Source: Pantoea eucrina | Lineage (GTDB): Bacteria > Pseudomonadota > Gammaproteobacteria > Enterobacterales > Enterobacteriaceae | Assembly (NCBI RefSeq): GCF_002095385.1 | Contig: NZ_MIPP01000005.1 | Location: 1-64,000 of the forward strand | Direction: 5' to 3' | Length of the DNA stretch: 64,000 nucleotides | Notes under the pieces: generated by a model | The model's input: only the letters and a program-made list of their open reading frames with translations | What the model was told of the DNA's origin: nothing | Databases searched by the model: none | Shown: positions 45,001 to 55,266 of the stretch, piece by piece | Position numbering within the stretch: the first letter of the stretch is position 1 | Layout: each line of letters begins with the position of its first letter | Made by a program: the position numbers and the translations under genes

Positions 45001-45675
45001 GTGTTAACCCGGGAATTCTTACTTAAAGCCGATTGCAAAACATCCTTTGGTGATATCGATGAAGCACTGCTGTGGAGCTGTGAAAAGCGCGCCGCTTCGC
45101 TTTCTGCCACGCTCGCCTGTCGGCCCGATCAAAGTCCGGTGTGGATCTTTGGTTATGGTTCGCTGATGTGGAACCCGGTGTTTGACGCGGAGGAGGTGGC
45201 TTCGGGGCGCCTGGAAGGGTGGCATCGTGCGTTCTGTCTGCGGCTCACCGCCGGACGGGGCACCGAGGCCGCACCCGGACGCATGCTGGCGCTGAAAGAG
45301 GGCGGCAGCACCAGCGGCCTGGCCTTTCGTCTGCCGGAGGCGCGCCTGCATGAAGAACTGGAGCTGCTCTGGAAGCGCGAGATGATCACCGGCTGCTATC
45401 TGCCCACCTGGTGTGAGCTGCAGCTGGAGGATGGACGCCGCGTTACCGCGCTGGTGTTCATCATGGATCCGCGTCATCCGCTATATGAGGATGACTCCTG
45501 CCGCAGTACCATTGCACCCCTGATTGCGCAGGCGAGCGGGCCGCTCGGAACCAATGCGCAGTATCTTTTCTCGCTTGAGCAGGAGCTGGTCAGACGCGGC
45601 ATGCAGGAAGCCGCGCTGACGCGTCTTGCCGCTGAGGTAAGAGCGCTGCAGCAGCGCAGCGCACCTCAGGCTTAA
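45001..45675 (+). CDS. chaC: Glutathione-specific gamma-glutamylcyclotransferase ChaC
   Basis: Degrades glutathione to 5-oxoproline and Cys-Gly. 224 residues from GTG 45001 (VLTREFLLKADCKTSFG), with GAGGAG 7 nt upstream. The substrate-binding GYGSLMWNP motif is near residue 50, followed by WHRAFCLRLTAGRGT and the REMITGCYLPTW segment. The 3' end overlaps the convergent kinase gene by 4 bp, the border of the T6SS-like cluster. Confidence 0.95.
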   Translation: MLTREFLLKADCKTSFGDIDEALLWSCEKRAASLSATLACRPDQSPVWIFGYGSLMWNPVFDAEEVASGRLEGWHRAFCLRLTAGRGTEAAPGRMLALKEGGSTSGLAFRLPEARLHEELELLWKREMITGCYLPTWCELQLEDGRRVTALVFIMDPRHPLYEDDSCRSTIAPLIAQASGPLGTNAQYLFSLEQELVRRGMQEAALTRLAAEVRALQQRSAPQA

Positions 45676-47090
45676 TTACCGGGGTTAATGAGCCAGGTAC
45701 CAGGCTGCTTAATCGTCAGGGCCTGGCTGCGCACCTGGTCGCCATGCCGCACCTCAAGACGATAGCTGCCGGCAGCGAGATTGAGTGACGCAAAACCGCT
45801 GCTGGCGGCTTTCACATCCTGCACTTCACCATTCAGCACGACGCTTTCGCCTGAATGCAGCTGCAGATAGATGGTGGCAATGGCAGGCGTACTGGCCGCC
45901 GCCGCCGGTACCTTCGTTGCTGCCGGCGCAGCGGCTTCCGGCGCGGCTGCGACAGGCGGCGTCTCACTGTGACGCACCGTCTGCCACACGACCAGACCCA
46001 CAGCCAGCAGCGCCACAGCAGCCAGCGCCACTATACCCGGCGAGACGCGCCGGCCTGCTGCACTGCCAGCGATCGGCTCAGCGGCGGCGGCGGCGGGATT
46101 CACCGCCACCAGCGGAGGTTCCGGTTCAGCGGCGGTCTCCGGCAGCCCGGCGGGCAGGGCAACAACCGGCAGCGGCGTGCTGAGCGCTTCGGCATCGCTC
46201 ACCGGCAGATCGATAAGCTGCGCAAAGGCGTCGATGGTCTGCGGACGATCCTGAGGCTTCATCGCCAGCGCACAGTCGATGGCGTGCAGCAGCGGCAGGG
46301 AATAGCCTTCAGGCCGGGTGACGGCAAGCGGCTGGTAATTATCCTCAATGCAGCGCACTACGCTGACCGGCGGCGCATGGCCGGTAATCAGCGTGTGTAA
46401 TACCGCCCCCAGCGCGTAGATATCGGTCCACGGACCCTGTTCAACCTCACCCTCTTCGCTATATTGCTCGATCGGCGCAAAGCCCGGCTTCAGCATGATT
46501 TCAGTTTCATCTGACAGATTGCCGATCTCTTTACGCGCTGAACCAAAATCGAGCAGTACCGGCAGCTGGTTATCCTGAATCTGAATATTATCCAGCGAGA
46601 TGTCGCGATGCAGATAGCCGGCAGTATGAATGGTGTTGATGGCACCAAACAGCGGCGGAAGCAGGCGACGGATCCAGGCTTCATCAACGGCGTCAGACTG
46701 GCTCGCCTGCCACGCTTTCAGCGTCATACCGCTATAGAACAGCGTGCCCATATAGGCGGTGCCGTTCTCTTCCCAGAAGCGCAGCACGTGCAGCAGCCCC
46801 GGATGATTAAAGCGTGCCAGCAGGCGTGCTTCCTGAATAAAGCTGTTGCGGCCCGCGTTGAACAGTTTCTGAAAGCGCTCACCGCGCAGTTCAAGCGACA
46901 TGTCGGCAGCGCGCACGGCCAGCGACTGCGGCATATACTCCTTGATGGCGATAAACCGTTCCAGCTGGTGATCCCAGGCGCGGTAGACGATGCCAAAGCC
47001 GCCCCCGCCCACGACGTCCCTGATTTCAAACTCGTTAAACCGGTAGCCCGCAGGCAGGGCATTAGGGATATGATTTTCGTTTGCCGACAT
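45672..47090 (-). CDS. PpkA-type transmembrane Ser/Thr protein kinase
   Basis: 472 residues from ATG 47090. A eukaryotic-type kinase domain spans about 15-290, with glycine loop VGGGGFGIVYRA, Lys in FIAIKEYMP, HRDISLDN and DFGSARKE intact. An Ala/Pro-rich linker follows, then one transmembrane helix (IVALAAVALLAVGLVVW, about 355-371) and a periplasmic PEGA-like beta domain (AAGSYRLEVRHGD). In T6SS clusters PpkA phosphorylates the FHA protein, and PppA reverses this; both partners are encoded here. It is last in the operon. The 5' extension to 47216 seems over-long. Confidence 0.9.
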   Translation of the reverse strand: MSANENHIPNALPAGYRFNEFEIRDVVGGGGFGIVYRAWDHQLERFIAIKEYMPQSLAVRAADMSLELRGERFQKLFNAGRNSFIQEARLLARFNHPGLLHVLRFWEENGTAYMGTLFYSGMTLKAWQASQSDAVDEAWIRRLLPPLFGAINTIHTAGYLHRDISLDNIQIQDNQLPVLLDFGSARKEIGNLSDETEIMLKPGFAPIEQYSEEGEVEQGPWTDIYALGAVLHTLITGHAPPVSVVRCIEDNYQPLAVTRPEGYSLPLLHAIDCALAMKPQDRPQTIDAFAQLIDLPVSDAEALSTPLPVVALPAGLPETAAEPEPPLVAVNPAAAAAEPIAGSAAGRRVSPGIVALAAVALLAVGLVVWQTVRHSETPPVAAAPEAAAPAATKVPAAAASTPAIATIYLQLHSGESVVLNGEVQDVKAASSGFASLNLAAGSYRLEVRHGDQVRSQALTIKQPGTWLINPGN

Positions 47091-47154
47091 AGTGAGTTCT
47101 CTGAACACATCCTGTAGTGCCTGTTGCCGCGGGGCAGCAGGCAGCGATCGCTGA

Positions 47155-48105
47155 TTAATTAATGTTACGCCAGGCACCGATAGCCGGATCGGCGAGATCC
47201 GCATGCAGGGTGTCAATTAGTAACACTGTCACTTTTTGCTGTGGCATAAACTGCGGCGACCAGATGCCGCGTAAACGATCGACCTGCGTTTTCACCGTGC
47301 TGCTGTCACTGCCAGCTTTTTTATCCATCTGAATCAGCAGGGTACCGCCAAAGCGCCAGACATGCTCCCGCGCATCAAACGGCAACACCAGCCAGCTCCC
47401 GGCAGCGTCCGGCCGGGTCACAATCATTCGCTGTTTATTGACTGCGACAATTTCCAGCGGTTTGCTGCCGGTCGCGAGGCTGGCGACCGGATACCCCTGA
47501 TAAAAGGTCACCGGCAGCGTTGCAGGTTCACCTTTACTCAGCAGCGTTATGCTGGCTGCGCCTTCCAGCCAGCCTTCCGTTGAGCAGCGCTGCGCCGGCG
47601 CATCAGGAATAAACAGCGAAGCACCTTTGTCGTCCCACCAGGTGCGGAAATGACAGCCGCCCGGCAGCGCAAAGTGCTGCAGCGGCGTGTTGTCCGCCGG
47701 ACGGGAGAGATCCAGCGGTGCGGCGGTGGTGGCGCTGGCGCTGGCGGTTGCATCATTCAGGATAATCGGGCGCCAGTTCTGCAGTTTTGCTGCGCTGCCG
47801 TTAGCCAGCACGCTGCCTTCTTTGGTCATCATCTGCCACGGCAGCTCGTCAAGGCTGCCGCACTGGTTCGCCAGCAGCGTGCCTACCCGGGGCAGGAAGC
47901 TGGTGAGAATGCGCGTGTCGCTGCTTTTACCGGAGACAATACGTAACGGCAGCGTCTCTTTGCACCAGTCGTCGGGCGCTTTACTGGCAACATTGTCGAT
48001 CCAGACCTCGAGCGCCAGGCTGGGCGAATAGACCACACGATAATCTTCTGCCTGTGCATTCTGGGCCAGCAGCAGGGCGGCAATGCCCGACAACCACACT
48101 TTCAT
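47155..48105 (-). CDS. Periplasmic protein of unknown function in the T6SS-like operon
   Basis: 316 residues with a signal peptide (MKVWLSGIAALLLAQNAQA, cleavage before EDYRV). The mature protein has five cysteines (DDWCKE, NQCGSL, GGCHFRT and QRCSTE are visible) and looks beta-rich. A VRxRLRG-like segment (VDRLRGIWSPQFMPQQKVTVLLID) lies near the end. The position between the PP2C and kinase genes suggests a periplasmic sensor or input for the phosphorylation pathway, comparable in place to TagQRST; there is no sequence support for that role. I do not recognise the family. Confidence 0.75.
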   Translation of the reverse strand: MKVWLSGIAALLLAQNAQAEDYRVVYSPSLALEVWIDNVASKAPDDWCKETLPLRIVSGKSSDTRILTSFLPRVGTLLANQCGSLDELPWQMMTKEGSVLANGSAAKLQNWRPIILNDATASASATTAAPLDLSRPADNTPLQHFALPGGCHFRTWWDDKGASLFIPDAPAQRCSTEGWLEGAASITLLSKGEPATLPVTFYQGYPVASLATGSKPLEIVAVNKQRMIVTRPDAAGSWLVLPFDAREHVWRFGGTLLIQMDKKAGSDSSTVKTQVDRLRGIWSPQFMPQQKVTVLLIDTLHADLADPAIGAWRNIN

Positions 48106-48120
48106 AGGGATCCTTGCAAA

Positions 48121-48897
48121 TCAATAGTGAGGCGGCACAAAGCGCGCCGCATCAGCCTGAGAATAGAGCAGCGTGGCATCCTGCGGTTCGCCAATCCAGA
48201 TTGCCAGCGCGCTCAGGTTGTCCCGCTTGTCGCTGCGATTGACCGCCTGTTCCATCAGCGTCAGCCACTCTTCACAGGCGTTAACCATGCGTAACGCCTG
48301 TTCCATCTCCTGCGTGGTCAGGTTGAGCCAGAAGCCATCCGTGCAGACCAGAAACGCATCGCCGTCCTGGAGGTCAATCGCGCTGCTGAAGGTCACCGGG
48401 CGTACCGGCTCAGTGCCGAGGGCATTATAAAGTAAATTACTGTTAATGCCGGAATTTTCATAGCCTGCCTCTTGCAGATGTTGGGCCAGACTATGGTCCC
48501 GGGTTACCTCACATAGCGTACCATGACGAAAGTGATAAACCCGGCTATCACCGGCGTGCGCCCACCATGCACGCTGTTTTTCACGGTCAATAAACAGAGC
48601 CGCGAGCGTGGTGCTCATGCGGGAAAATTTCGGATTCTTCCCCTGCTCAGCCGCCAGCGTTTGCTGACAAAGAGTGATAGCCGCCTGGGTAGTGGCAGGC
48701 GTAAAGCTGCGGCTGTTTTGCACCGCGCTGAGGAGCGTATCGCGCACCAGCTGCGCTGCGTAGTCGCCACCGGGTAATCCGGCTACGCCATCACACACCA
48801 GAAAGCAGGCGCGCTCGTCGTCGAGTTGCGCACCGGTGCGATCCTGATTTTCGTCACGCCGGCCCTGCTGACAGCGGCTGGCAAACATCATTTTCAT
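48121..48897 (-). CDS. PP2C-type Ser/Thr phosphatase (PppA/Stp1 type)
   Basis: 258-residue metal-dependent phosphatase. Conserved motifs are RDENQDR, CDGVAGLPGGDYAA (metal aspartate), WWAHAGDSRVY, LVCTDGFW and RDNLSALAI. In T6SS-linked signalling PppA removes the phosphates added by PpkA. The gene overlaps the FHA gene by 4 bp, so kinase substrate and phosphatase are made together. Confidence 0.93.
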   Translation of the reverse strand: MKMMFASRCQQGRRDENQDRTGAQLDDERACFLVCDGVAGLPGGDYAAQLVRDTLLSAVQNSRSFTPATTQAAITLCQQTLAAEQGKNPKFSRMSTTLAALFIDREKQRAWWAHAGDSRVYHFRHGTLCEVTRDHSLAQHLQEAGYENSGINSNLLYNALGTEPVRPVTFSSAIDLQDGDAFLVCTDGFWLNLTTQEMEQALRMVNACEEWLTLMEQAVNRSDKRDNLSALAIWIGEPQDATLLYSQADAARFVPPHY

Positions 48898-50024
48898 GTC
48901 TCATCCGTCCGCGTCTGTGAATCTTTATACTGATTAACTTCCATGTCATACGCGTTGAGAAACGCTTCGCCAAACAGCGTATGGAAGTCATCTTCAATCT
49001 CGCCGGCAGTGCGCTGATAGTGTCGCGTAAAGGCGTCCCACAGGGCGGCCTTGCGCCCGCTGCTGAAGGCGATTTTAGGCAGAGCGCCATCCTCGCGCGC
49101 GCGATCTTCCAGCCGCTGCGGATTAAACGATTGCAACATGGCAGCAATGATCGCCCGGATACCGGCGATCATGCCCAGCTGATGCGCCTGCAAATCTACC
49201 AGCGCATCGCGCACTGCGGCTTCAGGCGGCATAAAACCCGGCATCTGGCTCTGATACATCTGCATCAGCACGGTTTTGCCGGAAGGCAGGATCTTAAACG
49301 GATTGTTGGCTTCGTTCAGAATCATGGTCATATCCGCTTTCACGCCGCGCTTAAGAATTGAACGCGAGGAGAGCAGGGCAACGGTTCCCTGAGAAAACAG
49401 GCTGAGCATACGACCGGTAACGCGCATCTGCTCTTCACCGAGCGATGTCTGATGACCATTATTGAGTCCCATTCCCTCCAGCAGAGCGGCGATAAGCTTC
49501 TCCTCGCCGGCTTCTGCAGGCAGGCGGGTTTGCGGTGCGCTGTCTCGGGCGGGATCGATGGCCAGCCGCGGATCGGGCCGCCGCTCCTGACGTACCGGGG
49601 CAGGGGGTCCCGGCATCAGCTCAGCACTCAGGACGGCCTCCTGCTGCATGCCAAGTGGATCGCTGGCGTCCTCGCTAAAAAACGACAGCGGATCGTCCTG
49701 TAGCGCAGGCTGATGCGCAGGATCGGTAATTTCCAGCATATATTGACCAATCTGCAGCCGATCGCCATGCTGCAGCAGGGCCTGGGCACCCCGCTGCACC
49801 ACCTGACCATTGAGCTCAATCGCCGTCACGCTGCCCTGTGCGGTCAGACGGCATTCCCCTTCGGCAGAGAGATGGACAAGCGCCTGCAGGCGTGAGATGG
49901 CGCGCGTCTCATCAGGCAGGATCAGATCGTTATCCTGACTGCGGCCAATGGTGCCGCCAGGCGGCATAAAGGTGACGCTTCTGGCGGGCACATCCGTATC
50001 GCACTGCACAAAGGTAAATTGCAT
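48894..50024 (-). CDS. FHA-domain T6SS-associated protein (TagH/ImpI type)
   Basis: 376 residues: an FHA domain (about 1-100, with GGTIGRSQDNDLILPDETRAISRLQALV) that should bind phosphothreonine, a Pro-rich linker, and a C-terminal ImpI/VasC-type domain (about 175-376, including GEEQMRVTGRMLSLFSQGTVALLSSRSILKRGVKADMTMI). FHA proteins are the usual substrates of PpkA and connect the phosphorylation state to assembly of the T6SS membrane complex. It follows TagF by 33 bp. Confidence 0.92.
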   Translation of the reverse strand: MQFTFVQCDTDVPARSVTFMPPGGTIGRSQDNDLILPDETRAISRLQALVHLSAEGECRLTAQGSVTAIELNGQVVQRGAQALLQHGDRLQIGQYMLEITDPAHQPALQDDPLSFFSEDASDPLGMQQEAVLSAELMPGPPAPVRQERRPDPRLAIDPARDSAPQTRLPAEAGEEKLIAALLEGMGLNNGHQTSLGEEQMRVTGRMLSLFSQGTVALLSSRSILKRGVKADMTMILNEANNPFKILPSGKTVLMQMYQSQMPGFMPPEAAVRDALVDLQAHQLGMIAGIRAIIAAMLQSFNPQRLEDRAREDGALPKIAFSSGRKAALWDAFTRHYQRTAGEIEDDFHTLFGEAFLNAYDMEVNQYKDSQTRTDET

Positions 50025-50057
50025 GAGTCATCCCGTTAACAAGGCAAACGTGCCGGC

Positions 50058-50756
50058 TTATTCAAACATGGGTGGATAGAGGCCATTACGTCCCGGCTGC
50101 GCACCCGCCGCCGGGTTAAATAACAGTGAAAAAAGCTCTGCGGTCAGCGGGCCGCTGTGTTTATGGGTGGCGTGGGCAAAGCCGTCACTGCGATTACTCC
50201 ACCAGTAGCTGATATGCTGCTGCGGTTCAAACCGTTCTGCCACTTCCTGCCAGCTCAGGGTGCAGGGAAGATCCGCAAAACCGATGACATCCATAATATC
50301 GCTGCGCTGATTGCCGGGCACCAGCAGGGGTGAGAGCTGCTGCATCTCTGCTTCCAGGCTCTCCGGCAGGGTGCGCTCGCGCACCGCTGACCAGAGCAGC
50401 CCGCCCAGTTCGCGAAACCAGTCGCCGGAGATAGTCAGCTGCGCCGGGTGCCACTCATTCAGCGTAAAGGTGCGCAGGGCCAGCAGCGGCCAGGCGCGTC
50501 CTACGCGATCGCACGAGGGCAGCAGGCAGCCCATCTGCACCTGCTGACGCAGCGGCGACAGCGGCAGAACAAAGTTCCACACCGGCGCGCGCAAAAAGAG
50601 CTGCGTGCTGGCGTGCTGCTGCTGATGCCAGTGGGTGAGTCCCTGCTGAAACCAGTGACTCCAGGGGGAGACCGTAGCCTCGCTCAGGCGCTGCCGCAAA
50701 AAATCGCCGGTAGCGGGGAGTTTGCCATACCAGCCCGGCACGCTGTGGTTCGCCAT
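50058..50756 (-). CDS. tagF: T6SS-associated protein TagF (ImpM/SciT family)
   Basis: 232 residues from ATG 50756. The N-terminus VPGWYGKLPATGDFLRQRL and the FRELGGLLWSAV segment are typical of TagF, known in P. aeruginosa as a post-translational repressor of T6SS that works alongside the kinase pathway. A GTG 21 bp upstream could also start it, but would overlap tssM. It lies 13 bp after tssM. Confidence 0.9.
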   Translation of the reverse strand: MANHSVPGWYGKLPATGDFLRQRLSEATVSPWSHWFQQGLTHWHQQQHASTQLFLRAPVWNFVLPLSPLRQQVQMGCLLPSCDRVGRAWPLLALRTFTLNEWHPAQLTISGDWFRELGGLLWSAVRERTLPESLEAEMQQLSPLLVPGNQRSDIMDVIGFADLPCTLSWQEVAERFEPQQHISYWWSNRSDGFAHATHKHSGPLTAELFSLLFNPAAGAQPGRNGLYPPMFE

Positions 50757-50769
50757 GTTTACCTCACCG

Positions 50770-52884
50770 TCACTCACTATAGCGGGTCAGCTGTCCGGCA
50801 GAGGCCTCTGGCGCGGTCGCCAGCACGCTGCTCTCCTGACCCGCCCGTTTCAGGTTTTCTGCAAGCTTGCGCATCATCAGCGCGTTATCACGTGCATAGG
50901 GTGAAGATTGTATCTGCTGATCGAGCAGCTGACTGAGATGCCAGTCGAGCTGCTGCAGATCGCGCACGCTGACATCGGCCGGCAGCGTGCGCTGCAGATT
51001 TTCGATCAGCCAGCTGCGCAGAAACGTGCCGTCGTAATTTCGCGGCTGATAAAGCATCTGATAGGCGCGCAGCGCGTTGCGGCTGTAAGCGTTATCGGTG
51101 CCAGGATCGTCGCGCAGCAAATGCGTGATCTGCTGCGCCACCCGCGGCAGCAGCAGAGACTTAAGCGCATTTTGATAAAGCACCCAGGCCGCGTCGCTGA
51201 CCTGTGTGCCGCGATAGAGTCCGGCGCGCATAGTAAGCGGCGGATTATCCAGCGAAAAGCGCTCGGACAGCGGCAGCTTAACCAGGTTATTTAAAAAGGG
51301 TAGCAGATCAAAAATATTATCGACGGGCTGATGTGTGACCTGCTGACTCTGCTGCGTCAGGGGCGCAATACGGCTCGCCACCTGATCAAGATAGCGCTGG
51401 TTTTGCACATAGCTGGTAAGCCATAAGCCGCACAGCAGGATCAGCGCACCCGCCAGCGCGCCATAGCCGATCCAGTGCAGCAGACGGTTGCGGTATTCCC
51501 AGTGGCGGTTGCTGCCGGCAAGGCCGCTTTCGCGAAACACCAGTTCGCTGAGCAGATCGCGGATAAAGTAGCTCTGGCCTTTATTGCCTGGAATAGGATT
51601 ACTGCGGTTAACGCTGTCCCAGGCTGCCAGGGTGTGGTCACCGCTCTGCGGCAGCTGCAGCTTGCGATTAAGGGCGCCCATAATGCGGTCAAACGGCAGG
51701 CCTTCCTGGGTCCCGCTGGTAAAAAACAGCCCGCGGGCAGACCAGGCAATATCCTCCTCATGACGGGAGAAGATCACGTCAAGATACTCATTAAGCAGCG
51801 GGCGCAGGGAACCAAACTCCTGCGGAAAGAGAAAGCTGTCAGCGCGCTGCATCAGATCGCGGTCGGCCGCCATGCGCTCCGACAGCTGCTGCTTAAGCTG
51901 CTGCTCAAGCCGCTGAAAACGTGCCGTAAAACTGCTCTGCCACTCGTCTTTGTGAGGTTTGCCCGGCTCCCAGGGAAAGGTAAATCCCCAGATGGCATCC
52001 CGCTGCGGCTTGCTGAGGCCCGCATGAAAGCTCAGAAATCCCTTCAGCAGATCCGTTTTGGTTACCATGATATAGACCGGAAAATGGATACCGGTTTGCT
52101 GATGCAGCTCAGCCATACGGCAGCGCAGCGCCGTGGCCTGCGCATGCCGCGCCTCTGCGGTGTCGGTCAGCAGGTCGGCCACGCTGATGGTGAGGATCAC
52201 GCCATTAATTGGCTGACGCGTGCGGTAGCGCTTGAGCAGGTTGATAAAGCTCTGCCACTCGGCGCTGTCGCGCGCGCGCTGGCTCTCCTGCAGCGCATAG
52301 CGCCCGGCGGTGTCGATCAGCACGGCGCTGTCGGTAAACCACCAGTCGCAGTGACGGGTGCCGCCTACGCCACGCACTGCGCTATTGCCGTGCGTATCCG
52401 TAAGGGGAAAAGAGAGGCCGGCGTTCAGCAGCGCGGTGGTTTTGCCCGCGCCCGGTGCGCCGACAATCAGATACCACGGAAGCTCATAAAGATAGTGACT
52501 CTGAAAACGCGCCAGCCAGCTTTTTTGATGATGGCGACCAAACTGCGTGCGTTTCAGACGCAGCGCGGCTTCGCTAAAGCGCTGTGCCAGCACCTGTTCG
52601 GTGGAGTGACGATCGGAGAGCTCTTCCTGACTCATGCTCTGGAGACGATTCAGCAGCTTGCTATTGAACCAGCCGCGCCATATTGCCGGAATAAGCTGAA
52701 ACAGCGTCCAGCAAAAAAAGAGCAGGGCCACGGCCAGCTGCCGGGAGAAAACCGGCTCCAGCGGTCGGGTCTCACCCCATACCCAGAGCGGGCCAAGCAT
52801 CCACACCAGGCAGCTGAGGGCGGTAACACCAATCAGACTCCAGAGCAGGCGATGAGTCAGCAGGTGACGAACAGATGTGCGCAT
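50770..52884 (-). CDS. tssM: TssM/IcmF-like T6SS membrane protein, C-terminally shortened
   Basis: 704 residues; full TssM proteins are usually about 1100 or more. Two N-terminal helices (about 13-33 and 48-67), a cytoplasmic domain with Walker A VGAPGAGKTT (about 141-150) and FTDSAVLIDTAGRY, and a third helix (about 470-490) are present. Only about 210 residues follow it, ending GQLTRYSE, so the large periplasmic domain that binds TssJ and forms the channel is missing. TagF begins 13 bp later, so the missing part is deleted, not in another frame. Confidence 0.92.
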   Translation of the reverse strand: MRTSVRHLLTHRLLWSLIGVTALSCLVWMLGPLWVWGETRPLEPVFSRQLAVALLFFCWTLFQLIPAIWRGWFNSKLLNRLQSMSQEELSDRHSTEQVLAQRFSEAALRLKRTQFGRHHQKSWLARFQSHYLYELPWYLIVGAPGAGKTTALLNAGLSFPLTDTHGNSAVRGVGGTRHCDWWFTDSAVLIDTAGRYALQESQRARDSAEWQSFINLLKRYRTRQPINGVILTISVADLLTDTAEARHAQATALRCRMAELHQQTGIHFPVYIMVTKTDLLKGFLSFHAGLSKPQRDAIWGFTFPWEPGKPHKDEWQSSFTARFQRLEQQLKQQLSERMAADRDLMQRADSFLFPQEFGSLRPLLNEYLDVIFSRHEEDIAWSARGLFFTSGTQEGLPFDRIMGALNRKLQLPQSGDHTLAAWDSVNRSNPIPGNKGQSYFIRDLLSELVFRESGLAGSNRHWEYRNRLLHWIGYGALAGALILLCGLWLTSYVQNQRYLDQVASRIAPLTQQSQQVTHQPVDNIFDLLPFLNNLVKLPLSERFSLDNPPLTMRAGLYRGTQVSDAAWVLYQNALKSLLLPRVAQQITHLLRDDPGTDNAYSRNALRAYQMLYQPRNYDGTFLRSWLIENLQRTLPADVSVRDLQQLDWHLSQLLDQQIQSSPYARDNALMMRKLAENLKRAGQESSVLATAPEASAGQLTRYSE

Positions 52885-54098
52885 CAGCGTTGGCCCTCCG
52901 GGGTAACCGCTGCTTCCGGCGCAGCGAAGAGTGTGATCTCAACCCGGCGGTTGCGGGCGCGGTTTTCATTGCTGTCGTTAGGCAGCAGCGGATTACTGTC
53001 GCCGCGCCCCTCAGCTTTAACGCTCTGCCCCGACGCCAGCTGCGTCGTCAGCAGCTGCGTAATAGCGCGCGCGCGGGCCAGTGAAAATTCATAGCTGGAG
53101 GCGAAACGGCCATCGACGGCGCGGTTATCGGTATAGACCGAGACCAGAACGGTTCCTTTAACGCTTTTCATAGCGCTGGCGACGTGCGCCAGCAGCGCGC
53201 GGCCGACCGGGTTTACAACGGTGCCGTCCGGAACAAAAAGTTTATCGGCGGGAATAATGACTTTGCTGCCAAACGCGCCATCGCTGACTTCCAGCTGACC
53301 GGCGGCAATCACATCATTCAGACGCTGGCGCAGATCGAGCAGCGCCTGCGGTGAAGCGGGGCGTCGTCCGGGCATGATCTGCGGCAGGGGAGTCTGATAG
53401 ATATCGCGCAGCAGCGGTTCAGCCGCATTGCCGAGCCGCCAGTTCAGCATGCTGTAGACCATGCAGGCGATAAGCGCTGCCACGGTGGCACAGGCCCAGA
53501 GCGGGACCATCGGCCGCGTCAGGCTGTTCACTAACGGATGCACCTCGACCAGCGGCGTTGCGGTGCTACTCTCTGCAGCGCGCGCGTCGTGGATCAGCTG
53601 CGCCAGACGTTTACGGATCCCTTCACACTGTGTGCGGCCGCTTTCGCTGCCGCGGTAGCGACCTTCATATCCCAGCAGCAGACAGTAATGGATGACTTCA
53701 AGCAGCCACAGATGCTGCTGCGGGCTTTGTGAAACGCGGGAGAGAAGCTGAAAGAATTTTTCACCCCCCCAGCTCTCATTGTGAAAACTCACCAGCATGC
53801 CGTTGCCTGACCAGACGCCGCGCGTCCCCCACGGCGTCTGTGCCGCCGCCTCATCCAGCACGCTGCAAAGACAGTAGCGTGCGCCGATAATCATCTCAAA
53901 CGGCAGGCCAGCCTGCTTGCAGCGCTGTTCAAACAGCCGGATTTCATCAATCAGCAGCTGGCGCAACCCGGCCGGATCGTCATGCGTGGCAGCCTGCCGG
54001 ATGCGGACAACAGCATTCAGCACCGGGGCGGCGGCGTTCAGCAAAAGGTTATCGTTGCCCGCGCTGATATCCTCGCGGGCAATGGGATCCTGCATCAT
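52884..54098 (-). CDS. tssL: TssL with C-terminal OmpA-like peptidoglycan-binding domain
   Basis: 404 residues. The DotU/TssL cytoplasmic domain (about 10-190; CSVLDEAAAQTPWG, SWGGEKFFQLLSRV, CLLLGYEGRYRG) is followed by one transmembrane helix (PLWACATVAALIACMVYSML, about 200-220). The periplasmic OmpA-family domain has TDNRAVDGRFASSYEFSLARARAI and EGRGDSNPLLPNDSNENRARNRRVEI. This evolved TssL would anchor the complex to peptidoglycan. It overlaps tssM by 1 bp. Confidence 0.95.
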   Translation of the reverse strand: MMQDPIAREDISAGNDNLLLNAAAPVLNAVVRIRQAATHDDPAGLRQLLIDEIRLFEQRCKQAGLPFEMIIGARYCLCSVLDEAAAQTPWGTRGVWSGNGMLVSFHNESWGGEKFFQLLSRVSQSPQQHLWLLEVIHYCLLLGYEGRYRGSESGRTQCEGIRKRLAQLIHDARAAESSTATPLVEVHPLVNSLTRPMVPLWACATVAALIACMVYSMLNWRLGNAAEPLLRDIYQTPLPQIMPGRRPASPQALLDLRQRLNDVIAAGQLEVSDGAFGSKVIIPADKLFVPDGTVVNPVGRALLAHVASAMKSVKGTVLVSVYTDNRAVDGRFASSYEFSLARARAITQLLTTQLASGQSVKAEGRGDSNPLLPNDSNENRARNRRVEITLFAAPEAAVTPEGQR

Positions 54099-54183
54099 TA
54101 ACTCTCGTTTTTCCTGGCGATGACGGCGCTATTTTGCCATAAACTGCGGTATGACTGTCGCCAATATGCGCCAGATTGTTGAC

Positions 54184-54687
54184 TCAATCCAGGATCCAGG
54201 TCGCGGTATCAGTGGTGCGGCACGCCTTACTGGCACCGCCTACTGCCACGCACACCTGTTTAGCACGACGCGGTTTCGGGCGATCGCTGCGCAACGTGGC
54301 GTCATAGCGGCTGGTCTCAACGGCCGCTTTAGGGGGGATATAGCCTATCAGCTGGCCTTCAGGCTCTTCAGCAATCGCCAGCCAGTTATGCTCCACCCGG
54401 CCAAGCACTTCAAAGCGCTGGGCGTTATCAAGGTAGCGCACGACTTTACCGCCGTAGTCAGGGGTGGTCATAACGGAAGCGGCGTAGAGTGCGCGCCAGG
54501 ATGCGTTGACGGGGGTGAACTCTGCCGGTGCGGCAACCGCATAACGATGCGTCAGGGTAACGCCGTTAACCGTACTGGTTACCAGCGTATCCTCTGTCAC
54601 TGCCGGCGGCGGGGTTTTGCACCCGGCCAGCGTCAGGGTCGCCAGCAGCGTAAGCATAAGCGTTTTTTTCACCATCATCCTTATCAT
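54184..54687 (-). CDS. Lipoprotein with SH3-like segment, first gene of the T6SS-like operon
   Basis: 167 residues with lipobox LAGC near residue 23 (LATLTLAGCKTPPP). The part KVVRYLDNAQRFEVLGRVEHNWLAIAEEPEGQLIGYIPPKA resembles a bacterial SH3 domain, a fold often used to bind peptidoglycan. It is not a recognisable TssJ, although it occupies the lipoprotein slot beside TssL and TssM. Several ATG codons lie close together at the 5' end (54687, 54678, 54675), so the exact start is uncertain. Confidence 0.75.
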   Translation of the reverse strand: MIRMMVKKTLMLTLLATLTLAGCKTPPPAVTEDTLVTSTVNGVTLTHRYAVAAPAEFTPVNASWRALYAASVMTTPDYGGKVVRYLDNAQRFEVLGRVEHNWLAIAEEPEGQLIGYIPPKAAVETSRYDATLRSDRPKPRRAKQVCVAVGGASKACRTTDTATWILD

Positions 54688-55266
54688 TCCATCAGATTAA
54701 TTGCAGAGTAACAGTGGGCGTACCCGGCGAGTATGAACATAGTGTGTTGCGAAAAAACCACGAAAAACAGCCAGATCTCTTCAGGACAACGTGCGTCTCA
54801 GTCTACCTAAGACTTTTGAGAATTCAAACTATTGCATCGCGGTAAATTGCGTGTTAGCACCATAACATCACGCCTGAAGCCGCAGAGGAGGTCTGCAGAA
54901 GGCTGCAACAGTTAAGCGACTTTTACGGTTCACCCGGCATCGGGCAGGCCGGGTAGCGAAGAATCTTTTCAGGCAAACGTCTGTCCGGGATAAAGCATTA
55001 TAAAAATTTATTTTTTACAGTGAAATTAATAATGTGATCTCTTTGCAGAAAATTCTCATTTTAAGATTTTCCGCGCCTGTTCAGATCCCCAAAACCCCGA
55101 TCGCGTCACGTCTTTTGTGCGCTGTTTCTGCTGAGAAAACGGACAGGGCACGACAACGATTTTACTTATGACGCAATAAGCAGGTTATTTCGTGGTTTAA
55201 TCCGCGCTTCACTCCCGGGTAAGTTTGTCATCCTGTGCTCAGAATTTCTGCCAGCTGAGGTGTGCT
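54688..55266. other. Divergent intergenic region before flhB
   Basis: About 580 bp between the T6SS-like operon and flhB. It contains a GC-rich hairpin at 54931-54954 (ACCCGGC with GCCGGGT) without a T-run, and an AT-rich block at about 54998-55070. It must hold promoters for both operons. I see no gene and no clear flagellar sigma-28 promoter. Confidence 0.5.

What the first reader, a model, noticed from the sequence alone, without database searches (positions are those of the whole stretch)
45672..54687. Incomplete T6SS cluster built around phospho-signalling
Eight minus-strand genes form what looks like one operon: SH3-like lipoprotein, TssL-OmpA, short TssM, TagF, FHA protein, PP2C phosphatase, periplasmic protein, kinase. 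All regulatory parts of the T6SS threonine-phosphorylation pathway are intact by motif, but no sheath (TssB/C), tube (Hcp), spike (VgrG), baseplate or ClpV genes are present. I recall that incomplete T6SS clusters have been reported in Pantoea. Retained frames with full catalytic motifs suggest selection, perhaps as an envelope signalling complex or a helper to a full T6SS elsewhere.
Basis: partly seen in the sequence, partly recalled or inferred. Interest (0 to 1): 0.7.

Follow-up and report, generated by a model that had tools for sequence, protein, structure and literature searches.

The report
Pantoea T6SS-2: switch without weapon
Eight neighbouring genes in a Pantoea bacterium keep the control switch and part of the membrane base of a bacterial weapon but none of its firing parts; the gene set was already published, and natural selection and an unusually conserved control sequence suggest that most lineages still use it.

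Summary
Window 45672-54687 (-) holds TagV, TssL-OmpA, a truncated TssM, TagF, Fha, PppA, an RtkS-like periplasmic protein and PpkA. It is a published locus: "T6SS-2" of De Maayer 2011 ("potentially non-functional") and "PA T6SS-3" of Shyntum 2014 (conserved, role unknown). The genome also has a complete T6SS on another contig, but no T6SS-1.

New here: (1) RtkS and the PpkA ectodomain match proteins solved together in one PDB entry. (2) The locus is in 58 of 61 genus genomes; median dN/dS per gene is 0.055-0.11. (3) 26 of the 58 lack any T6SS-1-like TssM; 23 of these have an intact TssM-2. (4) TssM-2 forms one clade across four Erwiniaceae genera, not a recent Pantoea duplication. (5) A ~36-bp block upstream of tagV occurs once in each of the 58 carriers and in none of the 3 others.

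Against independence: the operon is broken more often in genomes without any sheath gene (48 of 51 unbroken against 4 of 10, or 4 of 7 carriers).

Best reading: a selected RtkS-PpkA-Fha-TagF phospho-switch acting on its own TssL-TssM stub, not a secretion machine (0.5). A helper of a full T6SS remains open.

The parts
54800..54835 (-). Conserved promoter/operator-like block upstream of tagV: two adjacent short palindromes and a weak sigma-70-like TTGAAT-N16-TAGACT
   Evidence: its 20-mer (up to 3 mismatches) occurs once in each of 58 genus genomes with the locus and in 0 of 3 without; function inferred
54184..54687 (-). TagV, lipoprotein with bacterial SH3-like domain (lipobox LAGC read from the sequence)
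   Evidence: NF041850 8.3e-59, 198 bits (cut-off 300); role in Serratia from PMC7614798, summary and passages
52884..54098 (-). TssL (DotU) with C-terminal OmpA-type domain
   Evidence: PF09850 9e-64, PF00691 6.6e-9
50770..52884 (-). TssM truncated to 704 aa: three hydrophobic segments, Walker A, about 210 aa after the third segment; C-terminal half missing
   Evidence: the T6SS-1 TssM of G181 has 1209 aa
50058..50756 (-). TagF (repressor of membrane-complex assembly in Serratia, PMC6082577)
   Evidence: PF09867 1e-35
48894..50024 (-). Fha/TagH: FHA domain plus T6SS_FHA_C; linker much shorter than in the T6SS-1 Fha of G181 (376 against 618 aa in all)
48121..48897 (-). PppA, PP2C-type phosphatase
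47155..48105 (-). RtkS-like periplasmic protein, 4 cysteines invariant in 32 aligned; matches the protein of PDB 9k0l/9k1p/9k1u
   Evidence: (E 3.2e-42, residues 132-316); the name RtkS rests on gene position and pathway
45672..47090 (-). PpkA, Ser/Thr kinase with one hydrophobic segment and a C-terminal ectodomain
   Evidence: kinase domain to 5hnv PpkA, E 7e-149; ectodomain to 9k1u chain D, E 7e-18

Best explanation
The operon is a functional, old envelope phospho-switch that derives from a T6SS but no longer builds one. Shown: the gene content, intact motifs, purifying selection, the conserved upstream block and the absence of the firing parts. Inferred from the Serratia pathway: RtkS in the periplasm binds and stabilises PpkA; PpkA phosphorylates Fha; phospho-Fha overcomes TagF, so that TssL and the TssM stub assemble into an inner-membrane complex, held to peptidoglycan by the TssL-OmpA domain and perhaps TagV; PppA resets it. 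With the outer half of TssM, TssJ, baseplate, tube and sheath missing, the complex cannot fire; its output is the phosphorylation state or the complex itself. The conserved block is taken to be the operon's own promoter and operator.
For: Complete switch and its membrane target present, motifs nearly invariant. Median dN/dS 0.055-0.112 per gene, neighbour chaC 0.095. Locus in 58 of 61 genus genomes, 26 of them without T6SS-1-like TssM; all eight frames at 90% length or more in the window and 48 of 57 further loci, three more being cut by contig ends without a visible break. Five genomes without TssC have an intact short TssM; of these G155 has no TssC, TssK or Hcp match, all eight genes intact and a branch dN/dS of 0.047-0.051 against 0.080-0.091 in its sheath-bearing sister. 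TssM-2 is one clade over Pantoea, Mixta, Erwinia and Winslowiella rows and short in them. The upstream block is single-copy and more conserved than two control intergenic regions. T6SS-1 of G181 holds the same genes in the same order with structural genes between them.
Against: Operon breakage goes with absence of a sheath: unbroken in 48 of 51 genomes with TssC and 4 of 10 without (p 0.0003), or 4 of 7 when the three genomes under 3 Mb that lack the locus are left out (p 0.019). Also with absence of T6SS-1: TssM-2 intact in 32 of 32 against 23 of 29 (p 0.009); operon unbroken in 31 of 32 against 21 of 26 carriers (p 0.08). G155 lost its full T6SS secondarily, a 572-bp remnant remaining, so its sheath-free time may be short. 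In sheath-free G158 the branch dN/dS is higher than in its sister (0.121 against 0.059). The upstream block was not found in three T6SS-2 carriers outside the genus (L089; G020 and G031 by the degenerate pattern). No expression, phosphorylation or complex has been observed. The Fha linker is shortened and the phospho-acceptor is not established.
Confidence: 0.5

Rival explanations
1. Helper in trans: the operon's switch or its TssL/TssM stub regulates or assists a complete T6SS elsewhere in the genome, such as the cluster on C4, which belongs to a type (De Maayer T6SS-3, Shyntum PA T6SS-2, by gene order) for which De Maayer reports no kinase, phosphatase or FHA gene.
For: Unbroken operon in 48 of 51 genomes with TssC against 4 of 10 without, or 4 of 7 carriers; weaker association with T6SS-1. 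In the window's own genome the C4 system is the only complete T6SS seen.
Against: Not T6SS-1 specific: 26 of 58 carriers lack it. Of the eight proteins only TssL matches the C4 region at E 0.01, at 29-30% identity over about 90 residues, so direct exchange of parts is unlikely. Two genomes without TssC keep all eight genes intact. The association may reflect general genome erosion and was not corrected for kinship.
Confidence: 0.27
2. Decaying relic of a duplicated or acquired T6SS, not yet lost.
For: Only TssL and a truncated TssM remain of the core set; breaks in 6 of 58 carriers; De Maayer 2011 reports further loss in Erwinia.
Against: Median dN/dS 0.055-0.11 within the genus; one clade of short TssM over four genera; upstream block nearly invariant in the genus; exactly the switch plus its target is kept.
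Confidence: 0.1
3. A phospho-signalling module that controls other proteins (flagella, polysaccharide, envelope stress) through PpkA and PppA, with TssL/TssM as a platform.
For: Kinase and phosphatase motifs intact; the locus stands next to flhBA in this genome. A deletion of spk1 (T6SS-1 ppkA) raised exopolysaccharide in E. amylovora, as cited in PMC5561584 (passage).
Against: The flhB neighbour was seen in 9 of 57 other genus loci. Serratia Fha Thr438 is stated to be the sole PpkA target there (PMC6082577, passage).
Confidence: 0.12

Closest known systems
T6SS-2 locus of Pantoea and Erwinia (De Maayer 2011, PMC3235180); the 9-kb PA T6SS-3 of Shyntum 2014 (PMC3942780) fits the same locus
   Same: Eight syntenous genes; by Shyntum's count only icmF and dotU of the 13 core genes; kinase, phosphatase and FHA genes; no sheath genes
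   Different: It is the same locus. De Maayer called it partial and potentially non-functional and suggested partial duplication of T6SS-1; here TssM-2 is a separate clade, under purifying selection, with a conserved upstream block
Serratia marcescens TPP pathway RtkS-PpkA-PppA-Fha-TagF (PMC6082577) with TagV (PMC7614798)
   Same: Every named component has a homologue in the operon; the RtkS-like protein and the PpkA ectodomain match proteins of PDB entry 9k1u
   Different: In Serratia it controls a complete T6SS; here TssM is halved and TssJ, baseplate, tube and sheath are missing; the Fha linker is shorter than in the T6SS-1 Fha compared
Pantoea T6SS-1 (read in unnamed genus genome G181)
   Same: Same order TagV, TssL, TssM, TagF, Fha, PppA, RtkS, PpkA; 38-73% identity
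   Different: Between these genes T6SS-1 has TssB, TssC, TssE, TssF, an ImpE protein and a ClpB/ClpV-type ATPase, TssK, TssG and an effector island (by first residues, recalled), and a 1209-aa TssM
IcmF/DotU of Legionella-type IVB secretion (recalled as a precedent for TssL/TssM relatives without a T6SS)
   Same: TssL/TssM homologues act outside a T6SS
   Different: Far weaker match than to T6SS TssM (IcmF_IVB 61.7 bits, cut-off 1000); no Dot/Icm gene was noticed, none was searched for

Membership tests
Type VI secretion system | Contractile sheath TssB/TssC, Hcp tube, VgrG spike, baseplate in the locus | tested here: not met
   none among the eight genes; the genome's copies are on contig C4
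Type VI secretion system | Membrane complex TssJ-TssL-TssM with full-length TssM | tested here: not met
   TssL present, TssM ends at profile position 631 of 1168, no TssJ among the eight genes
Threonine-phosphorylation pathway, Serratia type | Hanks-type kinase with intact catalytic motifs | tested here: met
   G-loop, catalytic Lys, HRD and DFG invariant in 52 of 52 aligned (6 of 58 carriers dropped or cut); PDB 5hnv over the whole kinase domain
Threonine-phosphorylation pathway, Serratia type | RtkS-like periplasmic activator and matching kinase ectodomain | tested here: met
   both match proteins of entry 9k1u; the name RtkS rests on PMC6082577 and gene position; the Serratia sequence itself was not compared
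Threonine-phosphorylation pathway, Serratia type | PP2C phosphatase, FHA protein, TagF | tested here: met
Threonine-phosphorylation pathway, Serratia type | PpkA-dependent phosphorylation of Fha (Thr438 in Serratia) | tested here: inconclusive
De Maayer T6SS-2 / Shyntum PA T6SS-3 locus | Eight syntenous genes incl. IcmF, DotU, FHA, kinase, phosphatase | tested here: met
   gene lists compared from text passages, not from their figures or locus tags
Type IVB secretion IcmF/DotU | Closer to IcmF of T4BSS than to T6SS TssM | tested here: not met
   TIGR03348 637.9 bits against IcmF_IVB 61.7

The most novel reading that the evidence does not exclude
A T6SS was turned into a stand-alone envelope signalling machine early in the Erwiniaceae: the weapon was cut away, the phospho-switch and an inner-membrane TssL-TssM stub were kept, and the operon works from a promoter block with no second copy in these genomes, with an output unrelated to secretion.
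Probability: 0.3. Interest if true: 0.75.

Novelty: already known. Interest (0 to 1): 0.45.

Why it matters
[quoted passage not shown] If it works alone, parts of a contractile weapon have been reused as a sensor and envelope complex, and the threonine-phosphorylation pathway could be studied without the firing machine. The window's genome and its relative G155 (P. eucrina), one with and one without a full T6SS, give a natural test of 'independent' against 'helper'.

Tried and rejected
Helper of T6SS-1 alone: rejected as a general explanation, since 26 of 58 carriers lack it. Recent duplication of Pantoea T6SS-1: not supported; the Pantoea T6SS-1 TssM (L125) groups with 11 rows of other genera (100/100), and the join with T6SS-2 is unresolved. 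Fha Thr193 as phospho-acceptor: rejected, Thr in none of the 26 T6SS-1 Fha at that column. Regulon behind the upstream block: no second site with up to 3 mismatches in 61 genomes; best in the T6SS-3 region 7 mismatches, as in shuffled sequence (6-7). RNA family: only a sub-threshold RT-5 hit on the other strand. TssM and Fha against PDB sequences: none for TssM, only a weak FHA-domain hit for Fha (E 0.0068). Regulator of the block: nothing better than a guess. Structure prediction was not used. Listings of searches on this locus showed no functional test of it; the library is open-access only and most listed papers were not opened.

Limits: dN/dS is pairwise Nei-Gojobori; pairs are not independent; rows with stops, under 85% coverage or running off both ends were dropped (52-58 of 58 rows kept per operon gene, 49 for chaC). 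TagF was set one codon early in the scripts. 'Unbroken' includes three loci cut by contig ends (G157, G158, G201). Broken: G156 (kinase frameshift), G167 and G179 (frameshifts, neighbour chaC also broken, perhaps assembly error), G171 (stop in TssM), G191 (several genes), G200 (tagV in pieces). 'With TssC' includes genomes with only a partial or split TssC (G152, G207). 'T6SS-1-like' is any long TssM at 49% identity or more (32 genomes); five of these (G157, G180, G182, G192, G205) have only the 49-53% kind, part of which groups apart from L125 in the tree. The genus is that of the search tool and includes records labelled Mixta, Erwinia and Enterobacter.
Full report
OBSERVATION. From upstream to downstream on the minus strand: TagV, TssL with an OmpA domain, a 704-aa TssM, TagF, Fha, PppA, a 316-aa periplasmic protein and PpkA. 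Flanks are ordinary: FlhB, FlhA, ArgS and ChaA by family; a ChaC-like gene, kdsA and prfA are named by recall. The contig is 157,524 bases and the window is its first 64 kb, so the cluster is not cut by a contig end.

THE REST OF THE GENOME. One TssC, one TssK and one Hcp match, all on contig C4. Beside them are TssB, a ClpB/ClpV-type ATPase, VgrG, TssA, TssF, TssG, TssJ, a gp25-type TssE, a DotU and an OmpA protein and a long TssM. Their order (tssB-C-K-L; tssH-vgrG; icmF-tssA; tssF-G-J-E) is that which Shyntum gives for PA T6SS-2, the type De Maayer calls T6SS-3 (my equation of the two names). So a complete T6SS exists on another contig. Only two IcmF genes match, hence no T6SS-1 was found. 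The completeness estimate is 99.75%.

IDENTITY. The window is Pantoea, nearest to P. eucrina strain Russ (TssM 98%). De Maayer 2011 (PMC3235180; passages) describes this locus as T6SS-2: eight syntenous genes, partial and potentially non-functional, perhaps a partial duplication of T6SS-1. Shyntum 2014 (PMC3942780; passages) describes a 9-kb PA T6SS-3 in P. ananatis, lacking 11 of 13 core genes, highly conserved, under presumed strong selective pressure, role unknown. The finding is therefore a published locus.

THE SWITCH. The kinase domain matches PDB 5hnv PpkA over 286 residues (E 7e-149), and its C-terminal 68 residues match chain D of 9k1u. The periplasmic protein matches a 'Type VI secretion system-associated protein' found in 9k0l, 9k1p and 9k1u. 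So the kinase ectodomain and the periplasmic protein have relatives solved in one entry; the paper behind it was not found. In Serratia the periplasmic protein RtkS binds the PpkA ectodomain, stabilises PpkA and promotes Fha phosphorylation; TagF blocks TssL foci; phospho-Fha overcomes it (PMC6082577; abstract and passages). TagV is a lipoprotein proposed to bind peptidoglycan, supports some firing without TssJ, and did not bind TssL or TssM in vitro (PMC7614798; passages). Kinase G-loop, HRD and DFG motifs are invariant in 52 of 52 aligned genes, five PP2C aspartates are kept in 53-55 of 55, FHA Gly-Arg and Ser-Arg in 56 of 56, TssM Walker A in 55 of 55 (broken rows had been dropped).

THE STUB. 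TssM-2 aligns with T6SS-1 TssM of genome G181 to about residue 675 and then ends, while the T6SS-1 protein goes on to 1209. It keeps three hydrophobic segments and Walker A. The missing part includes the end that links TssM to TssJ (PMC7614798). In the T6SS-1 of G181 the same eight genes stand in the same order, with structural genes between them: T6SS-2 looks like a T6SS-1 with the weapon removed. TssM is short wherever T6SS-2 was seen: open frames of 705-749 aa in 9 genomes of a 149-genome family sample, two of them of this genus, and 694-757 aa in the named Mixta, Erwinia, Winslowiella and divergent Pantoea loci L079-L083, L085-L087, L089, L098, L100.

DISTRIBUTION. In the genus, 58 of 61 genomes have a T6SS-2 TssM, 55 with an unbroken frame; the 3 without it have genomes of 1.4-2.9 Mb. 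Some T6SS-1-like long TssM is in 32 of 61; 26 genomes have T6SS-2 without it, 23 of them with intact TssM-2. Ten of 61 have no TssC. None of these ten has TssK. Six of the ten have Hcp-family matches: near full length in G158, G168, G191 and G176, fragments only in G200 and G188; none in G155, G201, G171 and G190. Seven of the ten carry T6SS-2: all eight genes intact in G155 and G168; intact as far as the contig reaches in G158 and G201; broken in G171, G191 and G200.

SELECTION. Median pairwise dN/dS for pairs with dS 0.1-1.0: PpkA 0.089, RtkS 0.107, PppA 0.099, Fha 0.079, TagF 0.112, TssM 0.068, TssL 0.056, TagV 0.055; chaC 0.095; single pairs reach 0.31. Three-taxon branch estimates for genomes without TssC are G155 0.047, G158 0.121, G168 0.118, G200 0.076, G201 0.184, against 0.091, 0.059, 0.102, 0.077 and 0.195 for their sisters; G152, with only a partial TssC, has 0.086 against 0.036. 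None is near 1; three of these six exceed their sister. G155 kept a 572-bp piece of the T6SS-3 tssE/tssJ region at 94% identity, so its loss of the full T6SS is most likely secondary and may be recent.

RESULTS AGAINST INDEPENDENCE. The operon is unbroken in 48 of 51 genomes with TssC and in 4 of 10 without (p 0.0003), or 4 of 7 after leaving out the three genomes under 3 Mb that lack the locus (p 0.019). For TssM alone the figures are 50 of 51 and 5 of 10 (p 0.0002) or 5 of 7 (p 0.036). Against T6SS-1: TssM-2 intact in 32 of 32 with it and 23 of 29 without (p 0.009); operon unbroken in 31 of 32 and 21 of 26 carriers (p 0.08). This fits a helper role, or erosion of the whole genome in these lineages; kinship was not corrected for.

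ORIGIN. In a tree of 51 TssM N-termini (22 T6SS-2, 23 T6SS-1-like, 6 outgroup) the T6SS-2 rows form one group with 100/100 support, spanning Pantoea, Mixta, Erwinia and Winslowiella; the Pantoea T6SS-1 row L125 groups with T6SS-1 of other genera. The split is thus older than Pantoea; the exact join is open. Vertical inheritance is inferred from the grouping by genus; no species tree was compared.

UPSTREAM BLOCK. Upstream of tagV lies GCAAT(A/G)GTTTGAATTCTCAAAAGTCTTAGGTAGACT (window 54800-54835, minus strand). Its 20-mer, with up to 3 mismatches, occurs once in each of the 58 genus genomes that carry T6SS-2 and in none of the 3 that do not; 51 of 58 are exact; the reversed control gave 8 matches in 7 of 61 genomes. 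In the 57 loci fetched it ends 1762-1942 bases before TssM; its core ends 50 bases before tagV in one of 30 loci aligned and 112-148 in the other 29. The best 30 columns are 98% conserved, against 77-79% upstream of chaC and chaA; upstream of kdsA it is 96%, where by recall and by the ORF list a coding gene lies close (prfA and flhB had too few rows). Of 11 divergent loci outside or at the edge of the genus, 10 have it with 2-5 mismatches; in L089 (Erwinia oleae) it was not found and L089 was left out. A degenerate form was found in 15 of 392 family genomes, once each. Of the nine T6SS-2 carriers in the earlier sample, seven match and two (G020, G031) do not; five of the 15 were not tested for T6SS-2 in my calls. 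By coordinates the five matches in known carriers of other genera lie 1.4-2.0 kb upstream of TssM. The block reads as two adjacent palindromes and as a weak sigma-70 promoter; the promoter scan did not pick it and listed another weak site at 54997-55024. Which it is was not shown.

MECHANISM. Shown: parts, motifs, selection, block. Inferred from Serratia: RtkS to PpkA to Fha, against TagF and PppA, governing assembly of TssL-TssM. Candidate phospho-acceptor: Thr214, invariant in 56 of 56, possibly the Serratia Thr438 by position (weak). The output is unknown; independence is favoured over a helper role by about two to one, a judgement.

Noticed in passing
window 54800-54835: Highly conserved single-copy block upstream of tagV, in the genus present only with the T6SS-2 locus; its regulator is unknown.
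   Followed up: partly
G000 contig C4 about 70.9-108.6 kb (L005, L002, L003): The complete T6SS stands next to type I restriction-modification-like genes and an integrase-like gene (by first residues, recalled), which suggests a variable region; in G155 most of it is missing, with short remnants left.
   Followed up: partly
   Followed up: no
L178 (G200; P. stewartii subsp. stewartii by matching contig length): tagV of the T6SS-2 locus is broken although the 20-mer of the upstream block is exact and the seven other genes are intact.
   Followed up: partly
window 54975-55072 (+): Sub-threshold Rfam match to RT-5 RNA (28 bits, gathering 45.7, E 0.0032) in the flhB-tagV intergenic region.
   Followed up: no
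locus flanks, L126-L182; L051, L058, L068, L075: The upstream neighbour differs: flhB near tagV in 9 of 57 genus loci fetched (some cut short); in four genus loci looked at, other ORFs, ABC-transporter-like by first residues (recalled), stand there, yet the conserved block stays with tagV.
   Followed up: partly
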